Below are positions 33,565 through 38,706 of a stretch of 46,563 nucleotides of DNA, piece after piece (the stretch's first letter is position 1; each line of letters starts with the position of its first letter). The notes under the pieces were generated by a model. It saw only the letters and a list, made by a program, of their open reading frames with translations, was not told the origin of the DNA and did not search any database. The DNA is taken from IMG/VR virus record IMGVR_UViG_3300046002_006534, positions 1-46,563 of that record. One strand, written 5' to 3'. This DNA is from a virus. A program made the position numbers and the translations under genes.

Positions 33565-33691
33565 AGGATCATTTCAGCAACAAATATGCATATCATTCGG
33601 AGATCGAGTCGTAGGTGCAATTCCTACACCCCTGACCATACACTGACAGGGGTTAGTTTAGTAGTAAAACGCGTAGCAAAAAGTTGATCCT
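33565..33691 (+). ncRNA. Permuted tRNA-like RNA in P element (P1)
   Basis: Closing stem AGGATCA (33565-33571)/TGATCCT (33685-33691 region). Order inside is 3' half first: T-arm GTAGG TGCAATT CCTAC, acceptor ACCCCTG, A, CCA (33636-33638). After TACACTGA comes the 5' half: acceptor CAGGGGT (33647-33653), D-arm GTTT/AAAC. The 7-bp acceptor pairs perfectly. The anticodon position is occupied by the P stem and its loops (TTTCAGCAACAAA / GCAAAAAGT), with GCGTA/TATGC as a possible stem. Confidence 0.7.
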
Positions 33692-33702
33692 GATTAAATA
33701 AT

Positions 33703-33787
33703 GCCTCCTTGGTGGAATGGTAGACACAAGAGACTTAAAATCTCTAGCTGTTATGGCGTGCCGGTTCGAGTCCGGCAGGGGGTACCA
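33703..33787 (+). tRNA. tRNA-Leu(TAA)
   Basis: Acceptor GCCTCCT/AGGGGGT, loop CTTAAAA, long variable arm, CCA encoded. Confidence 0.95.
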
Positions 33788-33793
33788 AATTAT

Positions 33794-33884
33794 GGATGGT
33801 GCGGAAGCAGGTGCTTCGACTAGTCTTGAAAACTAGCGTGACGGCTGATACCCGTCAGGGGTTCGATACCTCCACCATCTGCCA
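33794..33884 (+). tRNA. tRNA-Ser(TGA)
   Basis: Acceptor GGATGGT/ACCATCT, loop CTTGAAA, long variable arm, discriminator G, CCA encoded. Confidence 0.95.
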
Positions 33885-33910
33885 TCATAATTTAAAATGG
33901 AGAATATACC

Positions 33911-34147
33911 ATGGATACTGTAGAAGAAGATGTCGACATCAAACTCGAAAAACCTTCACGTGCAACCCGCTGGAAACGATCTATTGCTGCTCGACTTCGC
34001 CGTCAAGTATCAAGGTTTGCAAAAACAGCGCATCTCCAAAAAGACGAAGAAGATGCTTTGGCTCGTATCCGTGCCAAGAAACTTCTTGAAAAACAAAAGA
34101 AGCAAAGACGCAACAAAGTGGTTGACAATCGTATGGAATCGGTATAG
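33911..34147 (+). CDS. Small basic coiled-coil protein, 78 aa
   Basis: GGAG before ATG 33911. Acidic first 15 residues, then strongly basic (about 40% Lys/Arg) helix, likely RNA- or DNA-binding by composition. Its end overlaps the next promoter. Confidence 0.6.
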   Translation: MDTVEEDVDIKLEKPSRATRWKRSIAARLRRQVSRFAKTAHLQKDEEDALARIRAKKLLEKQKKQRRNKVVDNRMESV

Positions 34148-34150
34148 TTT
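34122..34150 (+). promoter_or_regulatory. Promoter, class B variant
   Basis: TTGACA 34122-34127, GGAATCGGTATAGT; -10 TATAGT with a 15-base spacer. Confidence 0.65.
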
Positions 34151-34183
34151 AAATATATAAGGTAACACAAAGGAAACCGAAAC

Positions 34184-34342
34184 ATGACAATGACCAAACT
34201 GATTGAACGTCTTGCTCGTAATGCTGCTGATTTTCTCCTTGCAGGTGAGATTGAAAAATCCAATGCTTGCATGGAACTGTTGACCGTTATCAAAGATAAA
34301 GGTCTTGAAAATATCCGCGGAAAATTGGTTGACAATCTGTAA
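34184..34342 (+). CDS. Hypothetical protein, 52 aa
   Basis: AAAGGAAA upstream of ATG 34184. Helical. The final codons supply the next -35 (TTGACA 34329). Confidence 0.55.
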   Translation: MTMTKLIERLARNAADFLLAGEIEKSNACMELLTVIKDKGLENIRGKLVDNL

Positions 34343-34357
34343 GAATCAGTTTATACT
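34329..34357 (+). promoter_or_regulatory. Promoter, class B
   Basis: TTGACA 34329-34334, AGAATCAG in the spacer, TATACT 34352-34357 (17-base spacer). Confidence 0.85.
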
Positions 34358-34385
34358 AAACTTATAACCAACCAAAGGAAATAAT

Positions 34386-34547
34386 ATGGAAACCTACGTA
34401 ATGCAAAATGTAATTACTAAGGAAAAAGTTACTTGCTATTGGTATGAGGCGCTCTCGCTTCGCCAAAAAGGTTGGATCGAAGTGGAATATATCCCAGACT
34501 TTGACTATGCTAATCTGGGTGATGAGTGTCTTGTTGATGAATGTTAA
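34386..34547 (+). CDS. Hypothetical protein, 53 aa
   Basis: AAAGGAAA before ATG 34386. Acidic and aromatic. Its stop is 5 bases before boxA copy 4, so the promoter serves both this gene and the following tRNAs. Confidence 0.55.
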   Translation: METYVMQNVITKEKVTCYWYEALSLRQKGWIEVEYIPDFDYANLGDECLVDEC

Positions 34548-34551
34548 TCTT

Positions 34552-34568
34552 GCTCTTTGACAATTTAG
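34552..34568 (+). promoter_or_regulatory. boxA-like element 4
   Basis: GCTCTTTGACAATTTAG, identical to copies 1 and 3; here it precedes the nut-like hairpin. Confidence 0.65.
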
Positions 34569-34575
34569 AAATCTG

Positions 34576-34608
34576 ATCACGTTAGTTGATGAAACTGTAA
34601 ACCGTGAT
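34576..34608 (+). ncRNA. nut-like hairpin, copy 2
   Basis: ATCACG/CGTGAT closing stem around the interior identical to 32013-32035. Confidence 0.6.
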
Positions 34609-34618
34609 TTACAAAAAC

Positions 34619-34792
34619 AAAACAGAGATTATCTGGCTCGGACAAACCGATAAGACCAGATTGAATACTCTCTGTTTTCACATGAGGGTCATGATGGTCC
34701 GTGAGTGCCCTAATCGTGTCGGCGATTTCGGCAGCTTCCGACAAAGTGAACGCAAGGTTCAATTCCTTGGTGACCCTTAGCTGAAAACAGAG
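34619..34792 (+). ncRNA. Three-part switch with enclosed tRNA-like RNA (H5)
   Basis: CTCTGTTTTCA (34670-34680) pairs with TGAAAACAGAG (34782-34792) or with AAAACAGAG upstream (34619-34627). Inside: acceptor GGGTCAT/GTGACCC (34686-34692/34770-34776) and T-arm CAAGG TTCAATT CCTTG, but a 50-base middle without a normal anticodon arm and no CCA. Confidence 0.6.
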
Positions 34793-34799
34793 ATAATGT

Positions 34800-37392: not shown

Positions 37393-37477
37393 AGCCAGAT
37401 GATAGCCAGGTATCATGGATTGAGTTTATATAGGTGACTATAGACATTCTATCCACGACACTGGTGACGCTCTGGCT
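37393..37477 (+). ncRNA. Closed-stem RNA before P2
   Basis: AGCCAGA (37393-37399) pairs with TCTGGCT (37471-37477), with hairpin GATA/TATC inside. Confidence 0.4.
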
Positions 37478-37492
37478 TGACAAATACAAAAT

Positions 37493-37710
37493 GGATCATT
37501 ACAGCAACAAATTAGCATCCTTGAAATGGGCCGTGTCGGAGGTTCAAATCCTTCCTCTCCCACCACGGATACTGTTAGTTTATGACAACCTTTCTTGTAT
37601 AAGATATTAATAGGCTTATATGGCGAGACAATTGGGTATAAACTAGCGTGCAGTATCTTTGATGGGAGAGTAGCTCAGGTAGTAGAGCAGGTTACGCAAA
37701 AAGTTGATCC
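37493..37710 (+). ncRNA. Permuted tRNA-like RNA in P element (P2)
   Basis: Stem GGATCA (37493-37498)/TGATCC (37705-37710). First comes the 3' half: T-arm GGAGG TTCAAAT CCTTC, acceptor CTCTCCC, A, CCA (37563-37565). A 98-base linker follows, itself a long hairpin (GATACTG/CAGTATC, TAGTTTAT/ATAAACTA). Last is the 5' half: GGGAGAG (37664-37670) and D-arm GCTC/GAGC. The acceptor pairs perfectly. The anticodon arm is replaced by P loops (TTACAGCAACAAA / GCAAAAAGT). Confidence 0.7.
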
Positions 37711-37723
37711 AGAAAAATAATGG

Positions 37724-37752
37724 TTGACATCCTTACAGAATCAGTATATATT
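37724..37752 (+). promoter_or_regulatory. Promoter, class B
   Basis: TTGACA 37724-37729, ACAGAATCAGTATA, TATATT 37747-37752. Confidence 0.8.
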
Positions 37753-37777
37753 GATTATATAAGGAAAGGAACCGAAC

Positions 37778-38083
37778 ATGAACCAATACATCTTCGAAAA
37801 AGCTTCCGATACTGCAATCCGTGTACTTTGGATTGAGTCTGATGAAGACGGTCGTAGATCGGTCGCCAATATCATGGAAATGTCTCATGATGGTTCTAAA
37901 GAAAGTCTGAAAGTCACCGTCAAATGTCTTTATGAAATGATGTTTATCGGTGAACAATCAGGTGATGAACTTGGTTATAAGGTTGAAGTTGCTTACAAAG
38001 ACTATGATGCTTCTCTTGAAGGTAAAGCTCGTAAGCAATCTTCGAAGGAAATTAACGTGATTACCGAACAACTTTTCGGTTGA
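37778..38083 (+). CDS. Hypothetical protein, 101 aa
   Basis: GGAAAGGA before ATG 37778. Mixed alpha/beta, acidic centre, basic C-terminus. Its stop lies within the next -35 (38080). Unrecognised. Confidence 0.6.
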   Translation: MNQYIFEKASDTAIRVLWIESDEDGRRSVANIMEMSHDGSKESLKVTVKCLYEMMFIGEQSGDELGYKVEVAYKDYDASLEGKARKQSSKEINVITEQLFG

Positions 38084-38108
38084 CAAACACACAGAATCAG
38101 TATATGGT
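38080..38108 (+). promoter_or_regulatory. Promoter, class B
   Basis: TTGACA 38080-38085, AGAATCAGTATA, weak -10 (TATATG/TATGGT). Followed by boxA copy 5. Confidence 0.65.
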
Positions 38109-38121
38109 AAACTTAATAACC

Positions 38122-38138
38122 GCTCTTTGACAATTTAG
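38122..38138 (+). promoter_or_regulatory. boxA-like element 5
   Basis: GCTCTTTGACAATTTAG, identical to copies 1, 3 and 4, 14-18 bases after the -10. Confidence 0.65.
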
Positions 38139-38160
38139 AAAAATAAACATAATAAATTAC

Positions 38161-38334
38161 AGACTTTATTATTGAAGGAACAGACAAGTAGCGTAAGGTG
38201 TAAATGGATGCACGGCCTTTGCTGGCAGGGACAGTTCGAATCTGTAACACAAAAGTTAGGATCAAACGTTGGTTGCAAACAGCGTCCTCGAATAGGATTA
38301 ATTACCCTATAGCGTTCTTTCAATTATAAAGTTT
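38161..38334 (+). ncRNA. Long-stem ~170-nt RNA with T-arm-like hairpins (H7)
   Basis: Bases 38161-38181 pair with 38314-38334. Inside: ACAG TTCGAAT CTGT, hairpin AGG-ACGTTG/CAGCGT-CCT with loop GTTGCAAA, hairpin ATAGG/CCTAT. Same order as H6 with different stem sequences. Confidence 0.65.
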
Positions 38335-38336
38335 AT

Positions 38337-38413
38337 CCGTGTGTAGCGCAGCCTGGTAGCGCATCTGGTTTGGGACCAGAGGGTCGGGAGTTCGAATCTC
38401 TCCACACGGACCA
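38337..38413 (+). tRNA. tRNA-Pro(TGG), copy 2
   Basis: Acceptor CCGTGTG/CACACGG, loop TTTGGGA, CCA encoded. Confidence 0.95.
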
Positions 38414-38417
38414 AGAT

Positions 38418-38503
38418 TACAATGGTTGTATCTGAGTTTTAGAAGTCTAGATACGGAAATTAACAAGATGATGGTTCGCTACCTCACTCATTATTCCATT
38501 GTA
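38418..38503 (+). ncRNA. Closed-stem RNA with T-arm-like hairpin
   Basis: TACAATGG (38418-38425) pairs with CCATTGTA (38496-38503), containing GTATCT/AGATAC and a GATGG TTCGCTA CCTC hairpin resembling a T-arm. Confidence 0.45.
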
Positions 38504-38512
38504 TTTTATATT

Positions 38513-38587
38513 GCGGACGTAGCTCAGTGGTAGAGCAGATGCTTGCCAAGCATCAGGTCGTGAGTTCGAATCTCATCGTCCGCTCCA
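38513..38587 (+). tRNA. tRNA-Gly(GCC)
   Basis: Acceptor GCGGACG/CGTCCGC, loop TTGCCAA, discriminator T, CCA encoded. Confidence 0.95.
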
Positions 38588-38593
38588 AGTTTA

Positions 38594-38706
38594 AGGATCA
38601 ATACAGCAATTTTAACAACCAGTAGATTGTAGGTTCAAGTCCTACCTTAGATCACACAAGATCTTTGTGGCCAAATGGTAAAGGCAACCGGCAAATAAAT
38701 GATCCT
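38594..38706 (+). ncRNA. Permuted tRNA-like RNA in P element (P3)
   Basis: Stem AGGATCA/TGATCCT. 3' half with T-arm GTAGG TTCAAGT CCTAC and TTAGATC-A comes first; the 5' half GATCTTT and D-arm GCC/GGC follows after about 5 bases. The acceptor has only five pairs and no CCA, so it is more degenerate than P1 and P2. Confidence 0.5.

What the first reader, a model, noticed from the sequence alone, without database searches (positions are those of the whole stretch)
33565..38706. Permuted, anticodon-less tRNA-like RNAs (P1, P2, P3)
At 33565-33691, 37493-37710 and 38594-38706 the T-arm and acceptor 3' strand come first, then a linker, then the acceptor 5' strand and D-arm. In P1 and P2 the 7-bp acceptor pairs perfectly and CCA is encoded before the linker. 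The outer ends pair (GGATCA/TGATCC), so the molecule would open where the anticodon arm should be. Alphaproteobacterial tmRNA is known to be permuted and cut into two pieces at the equivalent linker. I infer the host machinery could make two-piece tRNA-like RNAs from these genes. They may be decoys, aminoacylation substrates without decoding, or precursors to be ligated.
Basis: partly seen in the sequence, partly recalled or inferred. Interest (0 to 1): 0.93.

Follow-up and report, generated by a model that had tools for sequence, protein, structure and literature searches.

The report
Phage Y-RNA-like tRNA mimics with Ro60
The three odd "back-to-front tRNAs" are real and belong to a large, mostly unannotated family of phage small RNAs that put pieces of tRNA on a common stem, sit beside a phage gene for a Ro60-like RNA-binding protein, and probably act as tRNA decoys rather than working tRNAs.

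Summary
P1-P3 are real permuted tRNA-like RNAs, but not isolated two-piece tRNAs. They belong to a family with one shared scaffold: a covarying ~6-bp end stem starting with G, a conserved NTnCAGCAA next to its 5' strand, and a UGU tail. Within it lie interchangeable tRNA parts: anticodon stem-loops alone (87/264 short elements have an authentic tRNA anticodon loop; shuffles mean 0.9), ASL+T-arm, or whole permuted tRNAs whose acceptor is usually capped by a 3-9-nt loop (77 analysed; 6.1/7 acceptor pairs, 3.0 when swapped). The window holds at least eight. The elements are linked to a phage gene (window 4424-5887) whose predicted fold matches Ro60 best (2i91, E 1.9e-8): 51 of 68 loci fetched by the protein alone have an element within 500 nt upstream. 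They are best read as phage Y-RNA-like partners of a Ro60-like protein; the permuted class copies the YrlA layout (T-arm, capped acceptor, D-arm). Unexpectedly, the Rfam model of Dictyostelium Class I RNAs hits the short class, below its gathering score. Cultured phages carry them, including Felix O1 (250 records). A decoy role against tRNA-cutting defences is inferred, not shown.

The parts
4354..4407 (+). Family member: end stem GGTTAG/CTAACC, variant motif GTTCCGCAG, hairpin TGTTT-ATATTGA-AAACA; ends 16 nt before the Ro60-like gene
   Evidence: sequence; relaxed scan; fold
4424..5887 (+). Ro60-like protein (DUF2828 + DUF7788/vWA; phrog_850 'RNA-binding protein')
   Evidence: AF2 model pLDDT 78.9; Foldseek top three PDB hits are Ro60, E 1.9e-8 to 1.4e-7
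10389..10438 (+). Family member, ASL only: stem GGATGA/TCATCC, hairpin TTGT-TTGATAT-ACAA (loop fits tRNA-Ile GAU)
33566..33690 (+). P1: permuted tRNA in scaffold; loop ATTCGGA 33595-33601, T-arm 33611-33627, acceptor 3' 33628-33634, linker with CCA 33635-33646, acceptor 5' 33647-33653, D-arm from 33654
37493..37710 (+). P2: permuted tRNA-Phe(GAA)-like RNA; loop TTGAAAT, T-arm 37538-37554, acceptor 3' 37555-37561, ACCA at the start of a structured 102-nt linker, acceptor 5' 37664-37670, D-arm 37671-37688
38595..38705 (+). P3: permuted tRNA without an anticodon loop; T-arm 38629-38645, acceptor TTAGATC 38647-38653 closed by ACACAA onto GATCTTT 38660-38666, D-arm 38669-38685; anticodon stem ACCGG/CCAGT runs into the scaffold
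39713..39769 (+). Family member, ASL only: GGATCA/TGATCC, hairpin TTTCAA-TTTTGGT-TTGAAA (loop as in tRNA-Gln UUG)
40312..40388 (+). Family member, ASL (CAAAT-CTTCAAA-ATTTG, anticodon UCA) plus T-arm (GTGG TTCAATT CCAC) in GGATCA/TGATCC scaffold
40402..40463 (+). Family member, ASL only: GGATGG/CCATCC, hairpin ACAAA-CATTTAA-TTTGT

Best explanation
P1-P3 are phage Y-RNA-like noncoding RNAs. The shared scaffold (end stem plus CAGCAA motif plus UGU tail) is the handle bound by the phage's own Ro60-like ring protein (window 4424-5887); the inside is a replaceable tRNA-mimic module. Permuted modules are tRNAs opened at the anticodon side and usually capped at the acceptor, so the scaffold can hold them and they cannot be charged; short modules are just an anticodon arm. 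The RNP most likely displays these mimics so that host tRNA-cleaving or tRNA-modifying effectors bind them instead of real tRNAs. Shown: the family, its covarying structure, tRNA mimicry, linkage to the Ro60-like gene. Inferred: binding by that protein and the decoy role (about 0.9 for Y-RNA-like identity, about 0.4-0.5 for decoy function).
For: Linkage: of 88 loci fetched by protein only, 74 hold elements, 165 against 0-2 for control motifs, 164/165 on the gene's strand; 82 elements in the first 500 nt upstream against 0-9 in other bins. The gene is in 20 of 23 uncultivated contigs tested. Protein: Foldseek Ro60 hits; mycobacteriophage homologues are annotated 'Ro-like RNA binding protein'. 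RNA: the YrlA model aligns to a permuted member, 2e-8, same T-arm/capped acceptor/D-arm order. Covariation in end stem and ASL: 41 both-side changes against 7.9 shuffled, all 297 cells paired; acceptor covariation. ASL authenticity: 87/264 against mean 0.87. Decoy: payload anticodons are led by Lys UUU, Thr UGU, Arg UCU, with Asn GUU; UAA36-38 in 69/130 against 28.6% of tRNA genes; [quoted passage not shown] the YrlA tRNA-like domain was proposed as a competitive inhibitor of an anticodon nuclease (PMC7790460); one subfamily keeps its body while the anticodon varies.
Against: No expression or binding data. YrlA never reaches its gathering score (0 of 25 records), so the Ro-binding stem is not the known one. 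AF2/Foldseek TM-scores are only about 0.5; Pfam TROVE does not match the protein. G005 and G010 hold elements but no such gene was found (possibly incomplete). No element was found near the Ro-like gene in Mycobacterium phage Wilder or Serratia phage BF. Transplanting the ASL cleavage site alone did not make a T5 tRNA an AriB substrate, so a bare ASL may be a weak AriB decoy. Many elements come from related phages and are not independent.
Confidence: 0.7

Rival explanations
1. Same Ro/Y-RNA-like RNP, but for RNA decay or quality control: the tRNA-like module docks a nuclease such as PNPase (as in RYPER) or gates the Ro ring, and the tRNA likeness serves that docking rather than decoying.
For: Known role of Rsr/YrlA with PNPase (PMC8394870; PMC7790460); Ro60-like fold and gene linkage.
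Against: Does not explain authentic, diverse anticodon loops in stand-alone ASLs or an anticodon varying on a constant body.
Confidence: 0.22
2. Permuted tRNA genes processed into working two-piece or ligated tRNAs.
For: CCA encoded in P1, P2 and in total 20/77 relatives, many with 7/7 acceptors; RNA ligase 1 family genes in 4 of 20 contigs.
Against: Most acceptors are closed by 3-9 nt without CCA; several lack U33; most scaffold members are not whole tRNAs. CCA plus short linker would also follow from an origin by tandem tRNA duplication (inference).
Confidence: 0.04
3. Decaying tRNA pseudogenes or mobile cassettes with terminal inverted repeats, not functional RNAs.
For: Payloads are clearly tRNA-derived and vary from phage to phage.
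Against: Compensatory changes in end stem, ASL and acceptor; same strand as and position just upstream of one gene; conserved unselected UGU tail; intact four-arm fold in the widespread Felix O1-type copy.
Confidence: 0.03

Closest known systems
YrlA, bacterial Y RNA (Rfam RF02553) with Rsr/Ro60
   Same: Paired ends forming a handle; permuted tRNA-like domain in the order T-arm, capped acceptor, D-arm; gene next to a Ro60-type gene; proposed competitive inhibitor of an anticodon nuclease.
   Different: Different end-stem sequence and motif (GGAT.., NTnCAGCAA); no member reaches the YrlA gathering score; several per genome; many members carry a true anticodon loop or only an anticodon arm; partner protein is DUF2828/DUF7788, not matched by Pfam TROVE.
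Dictyostelium Class I RNAs (Rfam RF01414)
   Same: 42-65 nt, covarying 6-bp end stem with 5' G, CUUACAGCAA-type motif next to the 5' strand, CUGU 3' end, variable middle, many genes per genome; the RF01414 model picks out phage short elements.
   Different: Matches stay under the gathering score (best 34.5 against 41.5); described as unique to dictyostelids and bound by an RRM protein Rnp1A; no tRNA mimicry or Ro link found in the paper searched (PMC7919456).
Phage tRNAs that evade PARIS and other tRNA-cleaving systems
   Same: Phage-encoded tRNA sequence used against tRNA-targeting defence; [quoted passage not shown]
   Different: Those are normal tRNAs that replace cleaved ones; these mimics mostly cannot be charged or decode.
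Permuted tRNA genes of algae and archaea; alphaproteobacterial two-piece tmRNA
   Same: 3' half precedes 5' half in the gene.
   Different: No evidence of splicing or linker removal; acceptor usually capped; scaffold shared with payloads that are not whole tRNAs.

Membership tests
YrlA / bacterial Y RNA | tRNA-like domain ordered T-arm, capped acceptor, D-arm inside an outer stem | tested here: met
   77 permuted relatives, acceptor pairs 6.12/7; YrlA model aligns to an L120 element, 2e-8. Met by the permuted class only.
YrlA / bacterial Y RNA | Rfam model at gathering score | tested here: not met
   best 42-44 bits against 69
YrlA / bacterial Y RNA | gene linked to a Ro60/Rsr gene | tested here: met
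   51/68 loci have an element within 500 nt upstream of the Ro60-like gene; Ro60 fold
YrlA / bacterial Y RNA | binds Ro60/Rsr through the end stem | not testable with these tools
   needs pull-down or EMSA
Ro60/TROVE protein | overall Ro60 fold (helical-repeat ring plus vWA) | tested here: met
   Foldseek 2i91_A, 9nen, 1yvp_A, prob 1.00, TM 0.42-0.52
Ro60/TROVE protein | Pfam TROVE sequence match | tested here: not met
   weak profile match to TROVE chains, E 0.17
Dictyostelium Class I RNA | 6-bp covarying end stem with invariant 5' G, TTACAGCAA-type motif, CUGU end, 42-65 nt | tested here: met
   (TGT after the stem in 380/598, 0/98 in chance matches). Length met by the short class only.
Dictyostelium Class I RNA | Rfam model at gathering score | tested here: not met
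   best 34.5 bits against 41.5
Functional tRNA | recognised by ARAGORN / Rfam tRNA model, free CCA end | tested here: not met
   capped acceptor in most relatives
Two-piece tmRNA | tag-peptide mRNA domain and processed linker | tested here: inconclusive
   no tmRNA called in the window; processing cannot be seen in sequence

The most novel reading that the evidence does not exclude
Phages keep an evolving library of Ro-bound anticodon-arm and tRNA decoys against tRNA-cutting immunity, and these RNAs are of one class with Dictyostelium Class I RNAs, whose partner and role would then be explained by a Ro60-type protein.
Probability: 0.3. Interest if true: 0.96.

Novelty: new variant of a known kind. 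Interest (0 to 1): 0.9.

Why it matters
It gives hundreds of phages, including the classic Felix O1 and KVP40, an unannotated small-RNA family with a likely protein partner. It makes the suggestion that Y RNA tRNA-like domains inhibit anticodon nucleases directly testable in E. coli K-12 phages, adds a possible mode of counter-defence that uses tRNA pieces which cannot be charged, and offers a lead on the unexplained Class I RNAs of social amoebae.

Tried and rejected
Split or spliced tRNA gene with an intron in the anticodon (rejected: same scaffold around stand-alone ASLs; U33 missing in several). Known Rfam family at gathering score (none). BLAST of elements against cultured phages found no relatives (too short and diverged); the motif-plus-stem scan and RF01414 later found them. 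Bacterial genomes: 98 pattern matches in 257 Gb, those inspected look like chance and none has TGT after the stem. Single-sequence AF2 of the protein was poor. Hits in Sinorhizobium phage Phosso, XacN1 and Stenotrophomonas CM1 for the short pattern look like chance. Searches of the held library turned up no paper describing the elements; Sim and Wolin 2018 and Chen et al. 2014 on bacterial Y RNAs were not read (the latter is not held), so mention of phage Y RNAs there cannot be excluded; [quoted passage not shown]
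Full report
What is there. The window is a 46.6-kb fragment of a tRNA-rich, T4-related phage (34 tRNAs; topoisomerase large subunit 48% to Vibrio phage nt-1). In P1 the loop ATTCGGA is closed by ATC/GAT and in P2 TTGAAAT by CC/GG; the outer part of the anticodon stem lies on the D-arm side, so the scaffold enters the anticodon stem as a third helix (read from sequence). P3 has no loop left.

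The scaffold. All three share GGATCA-NTnCAGCAA at the 5' end and A-rich-TGATCC at the 3' end. The same scaffold encloses non-permuted payloads elsewhere in the window (10389, 39713, 40312, 40402, and a variant at 4354). Because those loci were fetched with scaffold patterns, the unbiased test is: 88 loci fetched only by a protein hold 165 elements against 0-2 for control motifs. The end stem covaries; with the ASL stem, 27 short members give 100% paired cells, 41 both-side changes against 7.9 shuffled, and slid structures give 0-4. The three bases after the stem, not used in those searches, are TGT in 380 of 598 viral elements and in 0 of 98 chance matches from bacterial genomes.

The payloads. 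Of 264 short elements, 198 have a hairpin scoring at least 3.5 pairs around a 7-nt loop, mostly 5 bp; 87 loops equal a tRNA anticodon loop seen at least twice among 2088 distinct phage tRNA genes, of 20 types; shuffled interiors give a mean of 0.87 and a maximum of 3. Leading anticodons are Lys UUU, Thr UGU, Arg UCU, Tyr GUA, Asn GUU. A middle class adds a T-arm, sometimes with a UUCG hairpin; some members hold a normal-order tRNA with a truncated acceptor. In the permuted class (77 anchored), own acceptor strands pair 6.12/7 against 3.03 swapped; linkers are mostly 3-9 nt, 20 of 77 begin with NCCA, several are GNRA or UUCG-type caps. The opening point varies: between D-arm and ASL, between ASL and variable arm, in the anticodon stem, or in the anticodon loop. 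One subfamily (TTGGTC cap) keeps its body while the anticodon changes (GCA, GTA, GGA, GAA, TGA, ACG, GCG).

The partner. A sub-threshold Rfam hit led to YrlA, a bacterial Y RNA. The YrlA consensus is T-arm, capped acceptor, D-arm in an outer stem, aligned to an L120 element at 2e-8 over the tRNA-like part. Y RNAs are partners of Ro60/Rsr. The window encodes a 487-aa DUF2828+DUF7788 protein, phrog_850 'RNA-binding protein'. With 48 relatives AF2 gives pLDDT 78.9 and Foldseek ranks Ro60 first to third (1.9e-8 to 1.4e-7), followed mainly by vWA domains at 2.6e-3 and above. Mycobacteriophage homologues are annotated Ro-like. In 68 distinct gene loci, 51 have an element ending within 500 nt upstream; that bin holds 82 elements, every other bin 0-9. 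In the window the 4354 element ends 16 nt before the gene. The gene is in 20 of 23 uncultivated contigs tested.

An unexpected second relative. The Rfam model of Dictyostelium Class I RNAs matches short elements end to end (33.8 bits, 4.6e-5 in 201 bases, gathering 41.5). In 24 phage records many of its 22 hits coincide with elements found independently, and it points to elements in nt-1, KVP40, 1.081.O and RHph_I1_18. Class I RNAs have a covarying 6-bp end stem with invariant 5' G, an 11-nt motif, a CUGU end and a variable middle, and were reported as unique to dictyostelids (PMC7919456). Whether this is homology or convergence is open.

Cultured phages. Aeromonas phages including Aeh1, nt-1 and KVP40, Campylobacter CP81 and E. 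coli phage garuso carry elements. The garuso 124-nt element folds by minimum energy into end stem, ASL, T-arm, capped acceptor and D-arm and has relatives in 250 records, among them Felix O1; in the 15 rows listed the match is annotated 'none' or as a hypothetical protein.

How it most likely works. Shown: a structured RNA family, tRNA mimicry, and tight linkage to a Ro60-like gene. Inferred: the protein binds the scaffold and the RNP presents tRNA parts that cannot be charged. The best-supported use is as decoys for tRNA-directed effectors: AriB of PARIS cuts Lys UUU, Thr UGU and Asn GUU at a UAAU site (PMC12409363), UAA36-38 is enriched in payloads (69/130 against 28.6%), and the YrlA tRNA-like domain has been proposed as a competitive inhibitor of an anticodon nuclease (PMC7790460). 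Against a simple version, AriB needs contacts beyond the ASL, and enrichment of such anticodons could have other causes. The main rival is an RNA-decay role like RYPER (PMC8394870).

Verdict. It is not filed as YrlA or as Class I RNA, because neither model reaches its gathering score.

Noticed in passing
window 2424-3041: Phage-encoded tRNA-lysidine synthetase TilS (NCBIfam TIGR02432, 3.5e-31).
   Followed up: partly
window 27725-28621: RlaP-like nucleotidyltransferase ('RNA repair pathway', PF10127), closest to Caulobacter and Rhizobium phage proteins.
   Followed up: partly
window 42034-42109: tRNA with anticodon CTA (amber-reading; ARAGORN calls it Pyl).
   Followed up: no
window 36396-36464 and 38190-38250: tRNA-like stretches with T-arm-like hairpins that ARAGORN does not call; possibly degenerate tRNAs or further mimics.
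   Followed up: no
window 37566-37663: P2 linker: its ends pair (GATACTG/CAGTATC) and it is itself structured; comparable long linkers occur in L049, L154 and L167.
   Followed up: no
L448:3610, L485:2993, L477:3789, L451:3804: Larger scaffold elements just upstream of the Ro-like gene with a recurring module like GTGAGTTTCGAATTCTCAC...AAAAAGTAGAAA, of unknown fold.
   Followed up: no
G023 (contig of L121) 188399-189403: A jumbo-phage contig with a true Pfam TROVE gene but no convincing scaffold element.
   Followed up: no
G002, G005, G007, G008: T4 RNA ligase 1 family genes in four contigs that carry permuted elements.
   Followed up: no
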